Below are positions 2,484-15,930 of a DNA stretch of 39,175 nucleotides, piece after piece. Source of the stretch: a virus; the IMG/VR virus record IMGVR_UViG_3300045454_000043, positions 1 to 39,175 of that record; one strand, written 5' to 3'. Under the pieces are notes generated by a model. The model ran no database searches. It was not told the DNA's origin and saw only the letters and a program-made list of their open reading frames with translations. The number at the start of each line of letters is the position of its first letter. Position 1 is the first letter of the stretch. The translations under genes and the position numbers were made by a program.

Positions 2484-2823
2484 CCTGTTCGTTTCCTCTC
2501 GCAAATCCTTCGATGCACAGCTCGACGGCGAGCTGCAGGTGGTACTCGCTGACGGTGAAGCACTCCGTCCATCCGCGACCGCGGAAGAGCAGGTCCTCTG
2601 CCTCGCGCCAGTTGCGGAACGCCTGAGGGAACCAGCGACGTAGTCGTCTGAGCGCCCATCTCTCCCACGAGCCGTCGGTGTTGCGCATGCACAGGATGAT
2701 TCGGGCGCCGGACATGCGGAGCATCGCGAGGCGTGAGCTGCGCCAGGCGCGACCGACCTTGAGGACGTTGGCGTGTGGCCAGTAGGCGACGTAGGTCATC
2801 GCGTAGGTGGGGCGGGCGCTCAT
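1783..2823 (-). CDS. GIY-YIG/T5orf172-like protein, over-long frame
   Basis: ATG 2823 overlaps the stop of the upstream recombinase (ATGA). Residues 8-100 read as a compact domain (YVAYWPHANVLKVGRAW, a second hydrophobic strand, then EDLLFRGRGWTECF), resembling the T5orf172/MUG113 branch of GIY-YIG domains. A canonical GIY motif is not present, so nuclease activity is uncertain. The frame stays open for 346 codons. From about residue 115 it becomes low-complexity Arg/Gly/Ser/Ala sequence running out of frame over the initiator-like gene. The real product probably covers only the first third (about 2823-2480). The stop may have been lost by mutation or a base error, or the gene may truly overlap its neighbour. 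Confidence 0.45.
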   Translation of the reverse strand: MSARPTYAMTYVAYWPHANVLKVGRAWRSSRLAMLRMSGARIILCMRNTDGSWERWALRRLRRWFPQAFRNWREAEDLLFRGRGWTECFTVSEYHLQLAVELCIEGFARGNEQGVNTNVAAEDHQRSGSTVRRLSARPARSEGDGPRPVAQDRPCRQETPGHHRDRRRAVPGGRPSGSRDSRRAAHPDARGVWVLGDLCGRRRGMARTTPTTARRPTRPGRNITGTPSDGLHGALAAFHGIRGCGEGARVGARESAGEGARGGGGRRPEVGRVEGASSDSVASTSGAAAASLSSSAGVCGSSGRYSGALRAMRHRSEVPREMVGAGTLRGSVGRVRRGQHRGSIAQ

Positions 2824-3659
2824 GCGACTCCGTCCTTTCGTGGCTGGTCGTTGGCGGCGAGGTCTTCGACGGCGTCGCGCATGACGCGGTGATCAAACTC
2901 GACGTAGCGCTGGGTGGTTCCGACGGATGCATGGCCGAGCATGGCCTGGACGAGGAGGATGTCCCGCCGTGAGGCGTAGAGCCGGGTCGCGAACCGGTGG
3001 CGGAGGGTATGCATCGTGAAGCCGTCAGGGAGGAGGCGGGCGATCAGCTTCCCGACGTACCGGGGCGATAGGTGGCCGTCGTCGTCGCCGGGGAACAGGT
3101 ACCCGGAGGGCGCGCCGGCGATGGCTTCGCCCAAGCTGCGGGGCAACGGGACCACGCGGTCCTTGTCGCCCTTGCCGTGCACCACGAGGCTGTAGTCGAC
3201 GAAGTCCTCGACGAGATCGTCGGTGTGCACCTTCGCGACCTCGGCCCGCCGCATCCCTACCTCGGCGGCCAGGCGGAGCATGAGCGCCTCGCGCGGGTGG
3301 GCGGCGAGCAGCGCTTCGTGGTACGCGCGGTCAGGAGCGGGCCGAGGCTTGCCCATCGACGATGGCACCTTTGGAAGGCGCTCGGCGATGTTCTCCGTCA
3401 CGAACCCTTCGGCGAGCGCCCAGGCGTAGAAGCGGACGTAGGTCGTGCGGCGGCCGCGGCGCGTCTCTTTGGCCCAGTCCTTCGAAGCAACGAAGTCCCG
3501 AAGCTCGTCGACGGTGAGATGCCAGGGGGTGGCGCTCACGTTCCGGGCAAGGTGCTCGAGCTGGTGGCGGCGCGCCTGTATCGTCTGCTCGCTCTTGCTA
3601 CCGGCGCGCTCGTGACGGAGGAAGGCTTCGATGGCGCGGTGCCAGCGTCGATCCAGCAT
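2820..3659 (-). CDS. Tyrosine recombinase, XerC/D-like (279 aa)
   Basis: ATG 3659 follows AGGAAGGA. An N-terminal SAM-like core-binding domain (about 1-100) precedes the catalytic domain, with R137 (GMRRAE), K163 (HGKGDKDR), H217 and R220 (HTLRHR), H243 (LGH) and nucleophile Y252 (TTQRY). All catalytic positions are present, so it is probably active. The catalytic half is visibly close to the integrase at 13148-14080 (shared HGKGDK.RVVPL, GYLFPG, LRHRFA and LGH motifs), suggesting duplication or exchange. It sits deep in the early operon, away from attP, so it may serve genome resolution or a second recombination reaction. It is coupled by ATGA to the next gene. Confidence 0.9.
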   Translation of the reverse strand: MLDRRWHRAIEAFLRHERAGSKSEQTIQARRHQLEHLARNVSATPWHLTVDELRDFVASKDWAKETRRGRRTTYVRFYAWALAEGFVTENIAERLPKVPSSMGKPRPAPDRAYHEALLAAHPREALMLRLAAEVGMRRAEVAKVHTDDLVEDFVDYSLVVHGKGDKDRVVPLPRSLGEAIAGAPSGYLFPGDDDGHLSPRYVGKLIARLLPDGFTMHTLRHRFATRLYASRRDILLVQAMLGHASVGTTQRYVEFDHRVMRDAVEDLAANDQPRKDGVA

Positions 3660-11341: not shown

Positions 11342-12031
11342 TCAGTCTTCGAAGAGGGTCGGGTGGGTGCCGGCCAGGGTGGGCTTGGGGTTCAGGGCGT
11401 GGAGGGTGCGACGGAGTTCGTCCATGCCCGCTGGTGTGATGTAGATCTGCGGGTAGGTGCGGCGTCGCTTCATGCCGGGCGAGGGGATCGCGACGTTGCG
11501 GATGGTGAGCACGCCGCGGCGGCGGGCGGTGGGGGTGATCTGCCACTCGCGCCACGCCGGGTTGTCAGCCTGCGCGCGGGTGATCCAGCCCTGGTCGGCC
11601 ATGTGGGCGAACAGGGAGTTCTGACCGATGCGGATCGCGGGGTCGCTGTCGAGGATCTGAGCTGCGACACGCACCGGGTGTGAGCCGATGAAGCCGGGGG
11701 TTGGTGCGGCGAGGTCGAGCGCTTCGTCGGTGAGCAGCTGCGCGAGGGTGGTGTCGAGCCACTGGAGGAACGTGGCCGCGGTCTCGGTCGCTTCGGACTC
11801 GCACCGGGCGATCGCGTCCTCGAGTTCGTAGTAGGGGTAGCCGTCGATCTCAAGCGGCCAGGCGTCGCCGAGCAGTGTTTCGCCGTGCGCCCACGGCGGG
11901 ATGCCGGCGAGGCGCTCGACGTCTTCGGCACGCAGGTACACGTGCCCGGCGCGGACGGCGACGTGCAGGTCGCCGTGCCCGAGCCACCGAGGGATCAGGT
12001 CCCGGGGTTGCTCGAGCTCGACCACGGTCAC
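11342..12031 (-). CDS. Phage antirepressor, KilA-C type (229 aa)
   Basis: GTG 12031 overlaps the previous stop (GTGA). The C-terminal half (about 110-225) matches the KilAC/ANT domain (RVAAQILDSDPAIRIGQNSL, then FAHMADQGWI, then TYPQIYITPAGMDEL). The N-terminal half has an AEDVERLAGIP recognition-like helix. Proteins of this type bind or displace the lysogenic repressor, or bind DNA, and tip the switch to lytic growth. It lies early in the operon transcribed from the promoter that the repressor would control, so it is a natural partner in the switch. The 126 upstream residues in the same frame are not credible. Confidence 0.75.
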   Translation of the reverse strand: MTVVELEQPRDLIPRWLGHGDLHVAVRAGHVYLRAEDVERLAGIPPWAHGETLLGDAWPLEIDGYPYYELEDAIARCESEATETAATFLQWLDTTLAQLLTDEALDLAAPTPGFIGSHPVRVAAQILDSDPAIRIGQNSLFAHMADQGWITRAQADNPAWREWQITPTARRRGVLTIRNVAIPSPGMKRRRTYPQIYITPAGMDELRRTLHALNPKPTLAGTHPTLFED

Positions 12032-12225
12032 CGCTCGTCCTCGCGCGGACCACCACGAAAGATGTCGACGCCGTCCATCCGGTCGAAGCGGGAGATCGCC
12101 TGAGCGGGGTCGTCGTGCGGATCGATCACGCGAGGGCGAGGACGGCTCTGCACGATCATCCGCGCACCGATCGCGACCGAGATCGCCAGCGACAGCAGCG
12201 CGATCGTGAGTGCGGCCGCGTCCAT
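12028..12225 (-). CDS. Small membrane protein (65 aa)
   Basis: ATG 12225 overlaps the previous stop (TGATG). One membrane segment covers residues 3-23 (AAALTIALLSLAISVAIGAR). A cytoplasmic-looking charged tail follows, ending in GGPREDER. Its function is unknown. Confidence 0.6.
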   Translation of the reverse strand: MDAAALTIALLSLAISVAIGARMIVQSRPRPRVIDPHDDPAQAISRFDRMDGVDIFRGGPREDER

Positions 12226-12494
12226 CACGCCACCACCACTCGGGGGACGTCCGGGGCGCACGCCTGCTGGGGCGCAGGTGAGGGCGCGGGGGACGCCACG
12301 CGCGCCCCGGACTGGGGGCCGGCGCTGTGGGATGCGCCGGTTCGACGGGCGGCGAGCTCCTCCGGGGAGAGGCGAACCGCCAGGTATGCGGCCAGCACCA
12401 CCAGGGCACCAGCGAGAGGGAGGCCGACCGGGGTCAGCTGCGTGCATACCGCGACCGACCCGAAGACGGCGGCGAGCGCCATGAATCGGATCAC
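12225..12494 (-). CDS. Two-span membrane protein (89 aa)
   Basis: GTG 12494 overlaps the xis-like stop (GTGA) and has AGG six bases upstream. Two hydrophobic stretches (about 4-19 and 22-42) are followed by a Pro/Ala/Ser-rich tail. It stands second in the early operon and may be a superinfection-exclusion or early membrane protein, but no family is recognised. Confidence 0.55.
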   Translation of the reverse strand: MIRFMALAAVFGSVAVCTQLTPVGLPLAGALVVLAAYLAVRLSPEELAARRTGASHSAGPQSGARVASPAPSPAPQQACAPDVPRVVVA

Positions 12495-12673
12495 GCGGCA
12501 CCTGCCAGGAGGGCCTCGATCTCGCTGCGGATGTAGCGCCGGTGGCCGGAGGGGAGGACGATGGGGTTCAGGCCGGGCATGGAGGCGAGCGTCTTGGGGG
12601 TGACTCCGAGGATGCGGGCCGCGTCGCCCGGCATCAGTCGGTCATCCGGTGACGGATTAGGAATCTGAGCCAT
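12491..12673 (-). CDS. xis: Excisionase-like MerR/BldC-type HTH protein (60 aa)
   Basis: ATG 12673 lies six bases after a -10 element with no ribosome site, so the message is probably leaderless. The protein is a single winged-helix domain (LMPGDAARILGVTPKTLASM, then LPSGHRRYIRSEIEALL), the usual shape of recombination directionality factors and BldC-like regulators. As first gene of the early operon opposite the repressor it could act both as excisionase for the integrase at 13148 and as a Cro-like regulator. The excisionase role is inferred from fold and position. An operator half-site (12651-12663) lies inside its codons 4-8. Confidence 0.7.
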   Translation of the reverse strand: MAQIPNPSPDDRLMPGDAARILGVTPKTLASMPGLNPIVLPSGHRRYIRSEIEALLAGAA

Positions 12674-12707
12674 ATCGGGAGGATAGGCACCAGTTTCCTA
12701 ATCCGTC
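12651..12707. repeat. 13-bp inverted repeat, candidate operator pair
   Basis: GACGGATTAGGAA (12651-12663) and its perfect complement TTCCTAATCCGTC (12695-12707) flank the early -10 element. The second arm covers the -35 of the early promoter. A second, shorter inverted pair, ATATCGG (12672-12678) and CCGATAT (12718-12724), is nested around the same region. The spacing would suit looping or two dimers of the repressor or xis-like protein. Confidence 0.6.
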
Positions 12708-12709
12708 AA
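12674..12709 (-). promoter_or_regulatory. Early promoter (leaderless)
   Basis: On the minus strand TTGACG (12709-12704) and TATCCT (12685-12680) are separated by 18 bases. Six bases after the -10 comes the ATG of the xis-like gene at 12673, so transcription should start at or next to the start codon. The 13-bp inverted repeat arm 12695-12707 overlaps the -35, as expected for repressor control. Confidence 0.65.
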
Positions 12710-12758: not shown

Positions 12759-13151
12759 ATGTCGTCATCAGAGGCATCAACTGTCGCCCCGAACGTGGAC
12801 GCCGAGATCGGTCGTCGCGTTCACCAGCTCATGTGGGACCGCCGCATCACGCAGACCGCTTTTGGCGCGCGGGTCGGTATGGACCAGAGCTCGGTCGCGA
12901 AGCGCCTGCGCGGGAAGCTCTCCTGGAGCGCTGCGCAGGTCGTGGCGGCCGCCGACGCCCTCGGCACTACCGTGGGCTATCTCTTCGGTGAAACGACAGA
13001 AGCTCCCCGCCCTCGCGAGGAGGACGGGGAGCAGATGGTGCGCCCCCTGGGACTTGAACCCAGAACCCACTGGGTATGGGCCGAGCCGGCGGCCGATCGC
13101 CCACGGAACCGCCGGAAGCTGAACCGCGGCCCACGGAACCGCGGCCAATGA
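12759..13151 (+). CDS. XRE-type immunity repressor with attP in its 3' end (130 aa)
   Basis: ATG 12759 is chosen over GTG 12753 because it fits the leaderless promoter. Residues 14-76 form an XRE-type helix-turn-helix (recognition part about 30-51: TQTAFGARVGMDQSSVAKRL). There is no peptidase or oligomerisation domain. The tRNA-derived attP core (13036-13070) is read as residues 93-104, including GLEPRT, the familiar translation of a reversed tRNA T-arm. Residues 105-130 are a basic Arg/Asn/Pro tail existing only in the unintegrated genome. Integration would replace this tail with residues encoded by the host. Its stop overlaps the integrase start (ATGA). The size and layout resemble the BPs-type repressor, whose viral form is longer than its prophage form. 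Confidence 0.8.
   Translation: MSSSEASTVAPNVDAEIGRRVHQLMWDRRITQTAFGARVGMDQSSVAKRLRGKLSWSAAQVVAAADALGTTVGYLFGETTEAPRPREEDGEQMVRPLGLEPRTHWVWAEPAADRPRNRRKLNRGPRNRGQ
13036..13070 (-). other. attP core: 3' end of a tRNA gene
   Basis: On the minus strand 13070-13036 reads as a tRNA 3' end: variable-loop bases, a 5-bp T-stem CTGGG/CCCAG around the loop TTCAAGT, seven acceptor bases GGGGCGC, discriminator A and CCA. The rest of a tRNA is absent, so this is no functional gene but the crossover segment by which integration would rebuild a host tRNA. From memory the bases look most like an actinobacterial tRNA-Lys, but the isotype is not proven. Confidence 0.85.
13099..13142 (+). repeat. Direct repeats beside attP, candidate integrase arm sites
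   Basis: GCCCACGGAACCGC occurs at 13099-13112 and 13129-13142. The inner GAACCGC occurs three times at exact 15-bp steps (13106, 13121, 13136). Repeats of this kind within 30-110 bp of a core are typical arm-type sites bound by the N-terminal domain of tyrosine integrases. They also encode the Arg/Asn-rich tail of the viral repressor. Confidence 0.55.
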
Positions 13152-14080
13152 CGACCCGTCCTACAGGTAGACGCGACCCTACCCGGCCAGGCGACAACTG
13201 GGAATCCCCTTCCCCGCGGGCTCATGCCGATTCAGGGTGGAGAATGCGTGTGCTTATACCAACTGGGGAATGGGAGCACACCCTCGCCGATTACGTCCGC
13301 TGGCTGGGTGCCTCTAAACAACCCCTGACGACACAGAAACTCCGTTCCTACCACCTGCGCCGGTTCGCTGTTGAGACCGGCCTGCAGCCGCGCGACGTCG
13401 CGGACACCGACCTCCTGGACTGGCTGTCACGTCCAGAGTGGTCCCGCGCCTACGCGCGTTCGTTCCGGACGACGTTCCGGTCGTTCTTTCGCTGGGCGGC
13501 GAAGAGTGGCTTGGTCGCCGAAGATCCCGCTGTCGACCTGCCCGTCATCAGCGTGGCCCCCGGAGTCCCGCGTCCTGCTGGCGAAGATGCCGTTCAGTTC
13601 GGGATCATGACCTCCGACGAGCGCACGCGCCTGATGGTGCGGCTCGCGGCCGAGGCTGGGTTGCGGTGTCGTGAGATCGCGCTCGTGCAGACGCGCGACG
13701 TCCTCCGGGACGTTGACGGTTACCACCTGCACGTGCACGGCAAAGGTGACAAGGAGCGCGTCGTTCCTCTCACCGACGCTCTCGCTGCGCGCATCCTCGA
13801 GCACCCACCCGGCTACCTCTTCCCCGGACGCGACAACGGTCACCTCTCGGCACCCTACGTGTCGAAGCTGGTGAGCCGCGCGCTGCCTGTCGGCGTCAGC
13901 GCTCACCCACTCCGCCACCGCTTCGCGTCAATCACCTACGTCGGCACGGGCGGCGATATCCGTGCCGTCCAGGAGCTCCTGGGCCACTCGTCAGTCGCGA
14001 CGACGCAGGTCTACACGAAGGTGCCCGACGGCGCAAAGCGGCGCGGCGTCCTCGCGGCGGCGGTGCTAACTCCTCACTAG
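13148..14080 (+). CDS. int: Tyrosine integrase adjoining attP (310 aa)
   Basis: ATG 13148 overlaps the repressor stop (ATGA), so translation is probably coupled; ATG 13244 is a possible shorter start. A core-binding domain (about 45-125) precedes the catalytic domain, with R173 (GLRCRE), K199 (HGKGDK), H253 and R256 (HPLRHR), H280 (LGH) and nucleophile Y289 (TTQVY). It should recombine the tRNA-derived attP with the matching host tRNA gene. With no separate promoter seen, it would be transcribed from the repressor promoter in the free genome and lose that promoter on integration. It is a near relative of the recombinase at 2820-3659. Confidence 0.9.
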   Translation: MTTRPTGRRDPTRPGDNWESPSPRAHADSGWRMRVLIPTGEWEHTLADYVRWLGASKQPLTTQKLRSYHLRRFAVETGLQPRDVADTDLLDWLSRPEWSRAYARSFRTTFRSFFRWAAKSGLVAEDPAVDLPVISVAPGVPRPAGEDAVQFGIMTSDERTRLMVRLAAEAGLRCREIALVQTRDVLRDVDGYHLHVHGKGDKERVVPLTDALAARILEHPPGYLFPGRDNGHLSAPYVSKLVSRALPVGVSAHPLRHRFASITYVGTGGDIRAVQELLGHSSVATTQVYTKVPDGAKRRGVLAAAVLTPH

Positions 14081-14608: not shown

Positions 14609-14917
14609 GTGACAAACAATCGCCGCTACGAGGCGCACTACGACCGCCTCAACGATCGACGCATCGAGCAAGGCACCAGCCGGCGCCGCGCGTGCACGCT
14701 CGGGAGCAACGCCTACGGGCCGCAGCCAATCCAGTGGGCGCCCCGCGGCCAGCTGCCGAAGGTGTGGGCGTGGATCTCTTGGGCCGATGATCCCGCATCC
14801 CGCATCCCCGCGGAGGCGTCCGGCTGGAACGACCGCGTCGTCATCATCGAGTGGGAAGACGACGGCGGTCGACGCAGCGTCGTGGTGTGGCGCAACGCCG
14901 TCACCCGCCGGTCATGA
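14609..14917 (+). CDS. Hypothetical protein (102 aa)
   Basis: GTG 14609 lies 12 bases after GGAGGAAGG, a long spacing. The N-terminal 40 residues are basic (YEAHYDRLNDRRIEQGTSRR). A Trp-rich beta part follows (VWAWISWADDPASRIPAEA, then RVVIIEWEDDGGRRSVVVWR), like a small sheet domain. Its stop overlaps that of the converging second integrase gene by six bases. No function is recognised. Confidence 0.6.
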   Translation: MTNNRRYEAHYDRLNDRRIEQGTSRRRACTLGSNAYGPQPIQWAPRGQLPKVWAWISWADDPASRIPAEASGWNDRVVIIEWEDDGGRRSVVVWRNAVTRRS

Positions 14918-15823
14918 CGCGATCCGGTCGGCGATGCCCGACAGGTGCGCACTGACCTTGTAGGCGGCGTGACGGTCGAGGCTGAGCCGGTTCCGGTCGT
15001 AGTGCTCGACCATGCGGATGTCCGCCCACCGGCCAGCTTCCTGCACCTCGCGGAGGCTGGCGCCGGCCTCGAGCGCGATCGACGCCATCGCATGCCGCAG
15101 CTGGTGCGGGTGGATGTGACCTAGCCCGGCCTGCTTCCCGAGGGTGCGGAGCCACCGGTAGACGTCGTGGCGGGTGAGGTGTCGCCCAGTGCGGGTGCGG
15201 ATCAGGTGCCCCTCTGTGCGGGCGCCGGCGGCGTGGTCGAGGATGCGGGCGATCAGCGGTGGGATGGGGATGGTGGCGGGCTTGCCGCCCTTCCCGACGA
15301 GACGCAGCACGCGGTGGCCGCGGTCGTACCCGGCGAAGTCCTCGATCCGCACCGCGGCCGCCTCGGACGCGCGCAGGCCGAGGCCGCCGAGGAGGATCAC
15401 GAGGGCGGCGTGCTGCGGTGACCGCTGGTCGGCGGTGAGCAGCAGCTTCTCGAGGTCGTGGCGGGTGAGCCCGGTCAGCCGTGCGGGGTCGTAGTACACC
15501 CGCGGGCGCCGCACCATGACGGTGGGGTCGACGGTGATCCGGGCGTCCGCGAGAGCGACCTTGAAGAACGAGCTCAGCACCACGAGGTAGCCGGCGACGG
15601 TGGAGCGCTTCAGGCCCTCTCCGTCCTGGAGGTGGTGGCTGAACAGCTCGATGTCCGCGCGGGTGGCGTGGAGGATGTCGGGGCCGTACCAGTCCTGGAA
15701 CCGTCGCAACGCTGCGGTGTAGGTCTTGTGGGTGGGGCCGGTGTAGCGGGCCAGGAACGTCGCGACCGCGACATCCGATTCGGTCAGTGCGCGCGCGGCG
15801 CGGACAGGGCTATTGTGAGCCAT
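14912..15823 (-). CDS. Second tyrosine integrase (303 aa)
   Basis: ATG 15823 follows GGAG at 7 bases. It has a SAM-like N-terminal domain (about 15-100) and a catalytic domain with the Arg of GLGLRASE, the Lys of LVGKGGK, the HPHQLRH box (His and Arg) and nucleophile Tyr in MVEHYDRN. The LGH motif is replaced by AGRW, with Trp in the usual His position, a known natural variation. It is clearly diverged from the other two recombinases (no HGKGDK.RVVPL or YLFPG motifs). It lies only 0.8 kb from the attP-linked integrase, on the opposite strand. Which enzyme works on the tRNA core is decided here only by adjacency. Confidence 0.9.
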   Translation of the reverse strand: MAHNSPVRAARALTESDVAVATFLARYTGPTHKTYTAALRRFQDWYGPDILHATRADIELFSHHLQDGEGLKRSTVAGYLVVLSSFFKVALADARITVDPTVMVRRPRVYYDPARLTGLTRHDLEKLLLTADQRSPQHAALVILLGGLGLRASEAAAVRIEDFAGYDRGHRVLRLVGKGGKPATIPIPPLIARILDHAAGARTEGHLIRTRTGRHLTRHDVYRWLRTLGKQAGLGHIHPHQLRHAMASIALEAGASLREVQEAGRWADIRMVEHYDRNRLSLDRHAAYKVSAHLSGIADRIAS

Positions 15824-15930
15824 GGTCGTCTCCAGGTAAGGCTGGTTTCGGCTAGGCCCGGCGAGTGTTGGTAGCACTCGTTCGGGCCGCTCCCATCTTC
15901 GGGAGACCCCGATTCTAGGCACGACGAAAA
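15824..15930 (-). promoter_or_regulatory. Leader of second integrase with hairpins and a -10
   Basis: On the minus strand TAGAAT (15917-15912) is a -10-like element. Between it and the gene lie CTCCC/GGGAG and a longer imperfect hairpin, whose core is CGAGTG/CACTCG around seven bases, extended by GGCCCG/CGGGCC (about 15856-15890). The region could hold regulatory structure or an attachment site for this integrase; no tRNA fragment is evident. Confidence 0.35.

What the first reader, a model, noticed from the sequence alone, without database searches (positions are those of the whole stretch)
12759..14080. Repressor-attP-integrase layout of integration-dependent immunity
A tRNA 3'-end (13036-13070) lies inside the reading frame of the XRE-type repressor, and integrase follows with an ATGA overlap. 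Integration at the matching tRNA would exchange residues beyond about 104 for host-encoded ones and cut integrase off from the leaderless repressor promoter. Mycobacteriophage BPs and relatives use this layout: the longer viral repressor is unstable and inactive, while the shorter prophage form is active. Here the viral form is 130 residues and the retained part about 104. The tail here lacks an obvious ssrA-like end, so the mechanism of inactivation may differ.
Basis: partly seen in the sequence, partly recalled or inferred. Interest (0 to 1): 0.88.

Follow-up and report, generated by a model that had tools for sequence, protein, structure and literature searches.

The report
Phage repressor trimmed by tRNA integration
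A bacterial virus carries its integration site inside its own repressor gene, so inserting into a host lysine-tRNA gene trims the repressor from 130 to 104 residues and cuts the integrase off from its promoter; this is a known kind of switch, but here the usual destruction tags are missing and the same DNA also appears to hold a stop signal for the host tRNA.

Summary
Confirmed. The window is a whole IMG/VR phage record. The XRE repressor (12759-13151, 130 aa) contains a 37-nt stretch (13036-13072) identical to the 3' end of tRNA-Lys(CTT) in two Curtobacterium genomes and one Microbacterium genome; integrase (13148-14080) follows with an ATGA overlap. In all three hosts the first base after the core turns Trp codon 105 (TGG) into TGA, so the prophage repressor is 104 aa.

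Twenty-four Microbacteriaceae genomes carry related repressors that stop inside an antisense tRNA (Lys, Val, Thr, Met, Asn, Arg). In 13, both prophage ends were found; rejoining them gives a repressor 18-38 residues longer. This is the integration-dependent immunity layout of BPs and Gordonia CW phages. New points:
(1) neither protein has a terminal ssrA-like tag; the integrase ends GVLAAA-VLTPH where a relative stops at GVLAAA;
(2) a strong terminator-like hairpin on the tRNA strand sits in the repressor coding sequence just after the tRNA CCA. It recurs in 24 of 39 family members, against 7 of 507 control windows;
(3) a second, tRNA-Arg-clade integrase lacks a recognisable tRNA-type attP.

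Inactivity of the viral repressor is inferred, not shown.

The parts
12759..13151 (+). XRE-type repressor, viral form, 130 aa; prophage form predicted to be residues 1-104
   Evidence: translation, Pfam HTH_31 and PHROG repressor hits, 36-53% identity to repressors of Microbacteriaceae prophages, 52% to the viral-form repressor of IMG/VR contig L119
13036..13072 (+). attP common core = antisense of the 3' end of tRNA-Lys(CTT), CCA included; read in the repressor frame as VRPLGLEPRTH
   Evidence: exact 37-nt match to tRNA-Lys(CTT) in three Microbacteriaceae genomes
13071..13073 (+). Trp codon 105 (TGG) that becomes TGA at attL because the first host base is A
   Evidence: virtual attL in three host genomes; all 46 Curtobacterium-group sites continue ...CTGATTAAG
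13074..13151 (+). viral-only repressor tail (with codon 105: WVWAEPAADRPRNRRKLNRGPRNRGQ), strongly basic, no ssrA-like end; contains the 14-nt direct repeat GCCCACGGAACCGC at 13099 and 13129
   Evidence: host tmRNA tags end -ALAA
13002..13032 (-). terminator-like hairpin (13-bp stem) on the tRNA strand, starting 3 nt after the tRNA CCA, embedded in the repressor coding sequence
   Evidence: folding, synonymous-codon null, survey of 39 relatives; the strict consensus scan did not call it because its T-run is weak
13148..14080 (+). tyrosine integrase, 310 aa, start overlaps the repressor stop (ATGA); ends ...AKRRGVLAAAVLTPH
12650..12708 (.). probable operator: exact 14-bp inverted pair TGACGGATTAGGAA (12650-12663 on +, 12695-12708 on -) around the early promoter
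   Evidence: repeats; pattern search, only near-exact copies in the window
12680..12709 (-). probable early lytic promoter (TTGACG-18-TATCCT) overlapped by the operator half-site
   Evidence: consensus scan
12491..12673 (-). first divergent early gene: 60-aa MerR/excisionase-like DNA-binding protein (position of the cro-like/RDF gene in BPs relatives)
   Evidence: Pfam MerR E=2e-4 (below cut-off), PHROG 66 E=0.003: weak

Best explanation
This is an integration-dependent immunity switch of a temperate phage of Microbacteriaceae (Curtobacterium or Microbacterium likely). In the virus, one promoter drives a 130-residue repressor and then the integrase. Integrase recombines the core inside the repressor gene with the 3' end of tRNA-Lys(CTT). 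The tRNA is rebuilt with the phage's copy of its 3' end, the repressor is cut to 104 residues by a stop made by the first host base, and integrase plus the repressor's tail move to the far end of the prophage, away from the promoter. The 104-residue form (helix-turn-helix plus a short linker, the size seen in natural lysogens) is taken to be the active repressor, acting on the inverted 14-bp sites at the divergent early promoter. The hairpin on the other strand right after the tRNA CCA would end tRNA transcription before it runs antisense through the repressor. Shown: layout, core identity, predicted truncation, truncation in related lysogens, recurrence of the hairpin. Inferred: which form is active, operator use, termination.
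For: Exact 37-nt tRNA-Lys(CTT) core inside the ORF; 104-aa product in three hosts; ATGA coupling as in Angel/BPs; integrase nearest to integrases found at attR of tRNA-Lys prophages (46-53%) and to Gordonia CW and BPs integrases (44-47%); 24 Microbacteriaceae loci where a related repressor stops inside an antisense tRNA, 13 with both prophage ends and a reconstructed viral form 18-38 residues longer; Gordonia CW phages with related integrases were reported to use a 37-bp tRNA-Lys attP and this immunity type (PMC5559632); BPs also gets its stop codon from the first host base (PMC9262239); hairpin statistics.
Against: No lysogen of this very phage was found. The tail has no ssrA-like end and the integrase's LAAA is followed by VLTPH, so the usual way of inactivating the viral repressor is not visible. 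The hairpin's T-run is weak in this phage. The query used to find lysogens includes 11 tRNA-derived residues, which favours repressors that end in tRNAs, although several hits match over the helix-turn-helix only.
Confidence: 0.82

Rival explanations
1. The layout is real but the switch has lost its gate: with both degradation tags gone or masked, viral and prophage repressors are equally active and integration only turns integrase off.
For: Repressor ends -NRGQ and integrase ends -LAAAVLTPH, whereas the relative L118 integrase ends -GVLAAA, the relative L119 repressor and integrase both end -GAAA, and many relatives end -AA, -AS or similar; host tag is -ALAA.
Against: Tag-less systems are reported in M. 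abscessus prophages and presumed to use other signals (PMC8092301); 4 of 13 reconstructed lysogen systems here also lack an alanine-containing end; the tail is retained as an open frame with the ATGA coupling and its codon-position GC pattern follows the repressor frame.
Confidence: 0.3
2. Ordinary tRNA-targeting attP that happens to lie in an open frame; the repressor overlap has no regulatory meaning.
For: Tyrosine integrases commonly target tRNA 3' ends next to int; GC-rich DNA has long open frames.
Against: In 24 lysogens from six tRNA types a related repressor runs into the tRNA, in 13 the longer viral frame is recovered, and the stop always falls within 3 nt of the core's edge.
Confidence: 0.05
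3. One of the other two tyrosine recombinases of the window (2820-3659 or 14912-15922, both -) performs integration, and the 13148 integrase is not the one used.
For: Three recombinases are present; 2820-3659 is a relative of tRNA-Arg integrases of the same system type.
Against: The only tRNA-like core next to a recombinase is the tRNA-Lys core beside the 13148 integrase, whose nearest relatives sit at tRNA-Lys sites.
Confidence: 0.07

Closest known systems
Integration-dependent immunity of mycobacteriophage BPs (cluster G; Angel examined here)
   Same: Repressor with attP core inside the frame, integrase downstream with ATGA overlap, tRNA attB, stop codon created by the first host base, 136 versus 103 residues (here 130 versus 104), divergent early gene.
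   Different: tRNA-Lys instead of tRNA-Arg; repressor tail ends -NRGQ (BPs/Angel ends -LDKAS, experimentally a degradation signal per PMC4557955); integrase 44% identical; Angel shows no significant hairpin after the tRNA.
Gordonia cluster CW phages (GMA5, GRU3, McGonagall, SallySpecial)
   Same: Related integrase (45-47%), tRNA-Lys 37-bp core, attP in repressor, hairpin after the tRNA in GMA5 and SallySpecial.
   Different: About 17-kb genomes; repressors end -AA; GMA5 has an extra gene between repressor and integrase.
Tag-less M. abscessus systems (MabC, MabN, MabO, MabH)
   Same: attP in repressor, stop codon at attL, no ssrA-like tag on repressor or integrase (PMC8092301).
   Different: Different hosts; sequences not compared here.
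IMG/VR contigs L119 (17.9 kb) and L118 (36.8 kb)
   Same: L119: repressor 52% and integrase 54% identical, tRNA-Lys core in the repressor. L118: integrase 55% identical, same conserved TATGGG after the core.
   Different: L119 repressor and integrase end -GAAA; L118 integrase ends -GVLAAA where the window's continues VLTPH. L118 begins inside the gene, so its repressor frame is undecided.

Membership tests
Integration-dependent immunity systems | attP common core lies inside the repressor ORF | tested here: met
[quoted passage not shown]
   tRNA-Lys(CTT) in three genomes by ARAGORN
Integration-dependent immunity systems | repressor and integrase in one operon, repressor first | tested here: inconclusive
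   same strand with ATGA overlap; co-transcription not testable
[quoted passage not shown]
   predicted for this phage in three hosts; observed in 13 related lysogens
[quoted passage not shown]
   tail ends -NRGQ; host tags end -ALAA
Integration-dependent immunity systems | integrase carries a C-terminal tag (typical, not universal) | tested here: not met
   ends -LAAAVLTPH; relative L118 ends -LAAA
Integration-dependent immunity systems | short prophage form active, viral form inactive | not testable with these tools
   needs immunity and stability assays
Integration-dependent immunity systems | operator at a divergent early promoter next to the repressor | tested here: inconclusive
   exact 14-bp inverted pair overlapping a promoter-like site; binding not shown
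Integration-dependent immunity systems | no arm-type integrase sites and no RDF | tested here: inconclusive
   a 14-nt direct repeat follows the core and a weak excisionase-like gene is divergent

The most novel reading that the evidence does not exclude
The repressor-attP segment is a four-way overlap: it encodes the repressor's linker, is the recombination core, supplies the tRNA's 3' end, and on the opposite strand carries a phage-borne transcription terminator that is installed downstream of the host tRNA on integration, shielding the prophage repressor from antisense tRNA read-through. In this phage the overlap works without proteolytic tags, so the viral repressor must be held inactive by another route, for example its basic tail.
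Probability: 0.45. Interest if true: 0.62.

Novelty: new variant of a known kind. Interest (0 to 1): 0.5.

Why it matters
It extends integration-dependent immunity to phages of Microbacteriaceae, where no paper in the held library reports it, and shows it is common there across six tRNA types. If the embedded terminator works, it explains how these phages express a repressor head-on to a strongly transcribed tRNA gene. The tag-less variant is a test case for how the viral repressor is kept inactive when tagged proteolysis is absent.

Tried and rejected
Nothing near-identical in the phage records or IMG/VR by repressor, integrase or attP core alone, so no lysogen of this phage could be read. 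The Curtobacterium group (67 genomes) has the attB but no related repressor, so the host stays open. A second tRNA-type attP for the 2820-3659 recombinase was sought and not found. Monophyly of the tRNA-Lys integrases is not shown (AU p 0.063). The direct repeat GCCCACGGAACCGC was considered as arm-type sites, but its near copies elsewhere are as frequent as chance. Joining the ends of L118's contig gave no intact repressor. Structure prediction of the repressor was not run: a single-sequence fold would not decide tail function.

Full report
What the window is. It is a complete IMG/VR virus record of 39,175 bases. Terminase, portal, capsid and tail genes lie on the minus strand to the right, early genes on the minus strand to the left, and the repressor-integrase pair on the plus strand in between. 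Terminase and capsid resemble Arthrobacter, Microbacterium and Gordonia phages at 41-59% protein identity. No near-identical phage is held.

The observation. The repressor is 12759-13151 (130 aa) and the integrase 13148-14080 (310 aa), overlapping as ATGA. The 37 nt at 13036-13072 are identical to the 3' end, CCA included, of tRNA-Lys(CTT) in two Curtobacterium genomes and Microbacterium halophytorum. Among 67 genomes of the Curtobacterium group, 46 have the site with at most three mismatches, and all continue CACTGATTAAG. After the core the phage reads G and the host reads A, so codon 105 changes from TGG to TGA. The predicted prophage repressor is 104 residues in all three exact hosts. BPs also gets its stop from the first host base (PMC9262239).

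Relatives in lysogens. Searching 400 Microbacteriaceae genomes and 367 genomes of the Microbacterium group gave 24 genomes in which a related XRE repressor runs into an antisense tRNA and stops 33-43 nt from the tRNA's 3' end: Lys(CTT), Lys(TTT), Val, Thr, Met, Asn and Arg. In 13 of them the second core copy was found 15-47 kb away with an integrase beside it. Rejoining the two ends restores a longer repressor frame, by 18-38 residues, and in every case the stop in the lysogen falls within 3 nt of the core's edge. The four tRNA-Lys(CTT) lysogens use two reading frames of the core, both of which meet an immediate stop in the host. The search query contained 11 tRNA-derived residues, which favours such loci, but several matches cover the helix-turn-helix only. 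In these lysogens the repressor is 89-112 residues long, so a 104-residue product is ordinary.

The integrase. The window's integrase is nearest to those at attR of tRNA-Lys(CTT) prophages (46-53%) and to Gordonia CW integrases; Arg, Val and Asn integrases form their own supported groups. Monophyly of the Lys set is not shown (AU p 0.063). Gordonia CW phages were reported to use a 37-bp tRNA-Lys attP and this immunity type (PMC5559632).

Missing tags. Tags of tmRNA in six of these genomes end -ALAA. Many reconstructed or viral-form repressors end -AA, -AS or another alanine-containing end, and many integrases end -AAA or -AA. The window's repressor ends -NRGQ. Its integrase ends AKRRGVLAAA-VLTPH where the 55% identical L118 integrase stops at AKRRGVLAAA. 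So the terminal tag is absent from one protein and apparently buried in the other. Tag-less systems are on record in M. abscessus prophages (PMC8092301), and 4 of the 13 lysogen systems here lack an alanine-containing end, so this does not exclude the system; it leaves the inactivation step unexplained.

The hairpin. On the tRNA strand, 3 nt after CCA, lies a 13-bp stem-loop (13002-13032). It is stronger than expected from dinucleotide shuffles (z -3.5) and from synonymous recoding of the repressor (z about -3.9). In 22 lysogens, 14 exceed the synonymous null at p<0.05. Over 39 family members including viral contigs, 24 have a hairpin of -18 kcal/mol or better at this place against 7 of 507 control windows upstream in the same sequences, and the T-rich side faces the tRNA direction (mean 4.0 versus 2.4 of 9, Wilcoxon p 0.001). 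Relatives are not independent, so these values overstate significance. Angel (BPs group) does not show it. In uninfected hosts a hairpin follows the tRNA at the same place. An ICE study shows that integration can displace a tRNA terminator and let the tRNA promoter read into the element (PMC13023037). The natural reading is that the phage brings a replacement terminator, written antisense inside the repressor's linker, that keeps tRNA transcription out of the repressor. None of the integration-dependent immunity papers I searched for the word mentions a terminator. The consensus scan did not call the window's hairpin because its T-run is weak.

Control region. Exact 14-bp inverted copies of TGACGGATTAGGAA flank and overlap a promoter-like site of the divergent early gene. 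This parallels BPs, whose operator lies between the -10 and -35 of its early promoter (PMC4557955). Binding is not shown.

Verdict. What it works like: BPs-type integration-dependent immunity, with high likelihood for the DNA logic and moderate likelihood for the activity switch. Membership: all layout features tested are met; the two tag features, typical but not universal, are not. I file it as a new variant of a known kind.

Noticed in passing
window 2820-3659 (-): A second tyrosine recombinase that groups with tRNA-Arg integrases of integration-dependent immunity systems (59% to one; support 97-99), placed in the early operon, with no recognisable tRNA-type attP or repressor beside it.
   Followed up: partly
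window 14912-15922 (-): A third, distant XerC-like tyrosine recombinase next to the integrase region.
   Followed up: no
window 13099-13142: Exact 14-nt direct repeat GCCCACGGAACCGC, 30 nt apart, just after the core; encodes the repeated PRNR of the repressor tail; possible integrase arm sites.
   Followed up: partly
L118 1-260: Relative contig shares CACTGG(A/G)TATGGG after the core and has a perfect hairpin with T-run on the tRNA strand; two frames through the core are open, one ending -SRAA.
   Followed up: partly
L036: Two tRNA-Lys(CTT) genes about 240 nt apart with a short repressor-like frame between them, possibly a remnant of an excised or decayed element.
   Followed up: no
L081 / L096: Two different related repressors in tandem in one genome, without an adjacent tRNA.
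   Followed up: no
L050-L052 (G389): Two extra core copies about 110 nt apart at attR, suggesting two integration events or a duplicated site.
   Followed up: no
window 11342-12409 (-): ORF with a KilAC (ANT) antirepressor domain in the early region; may act against this repressor.
   Followed up: no
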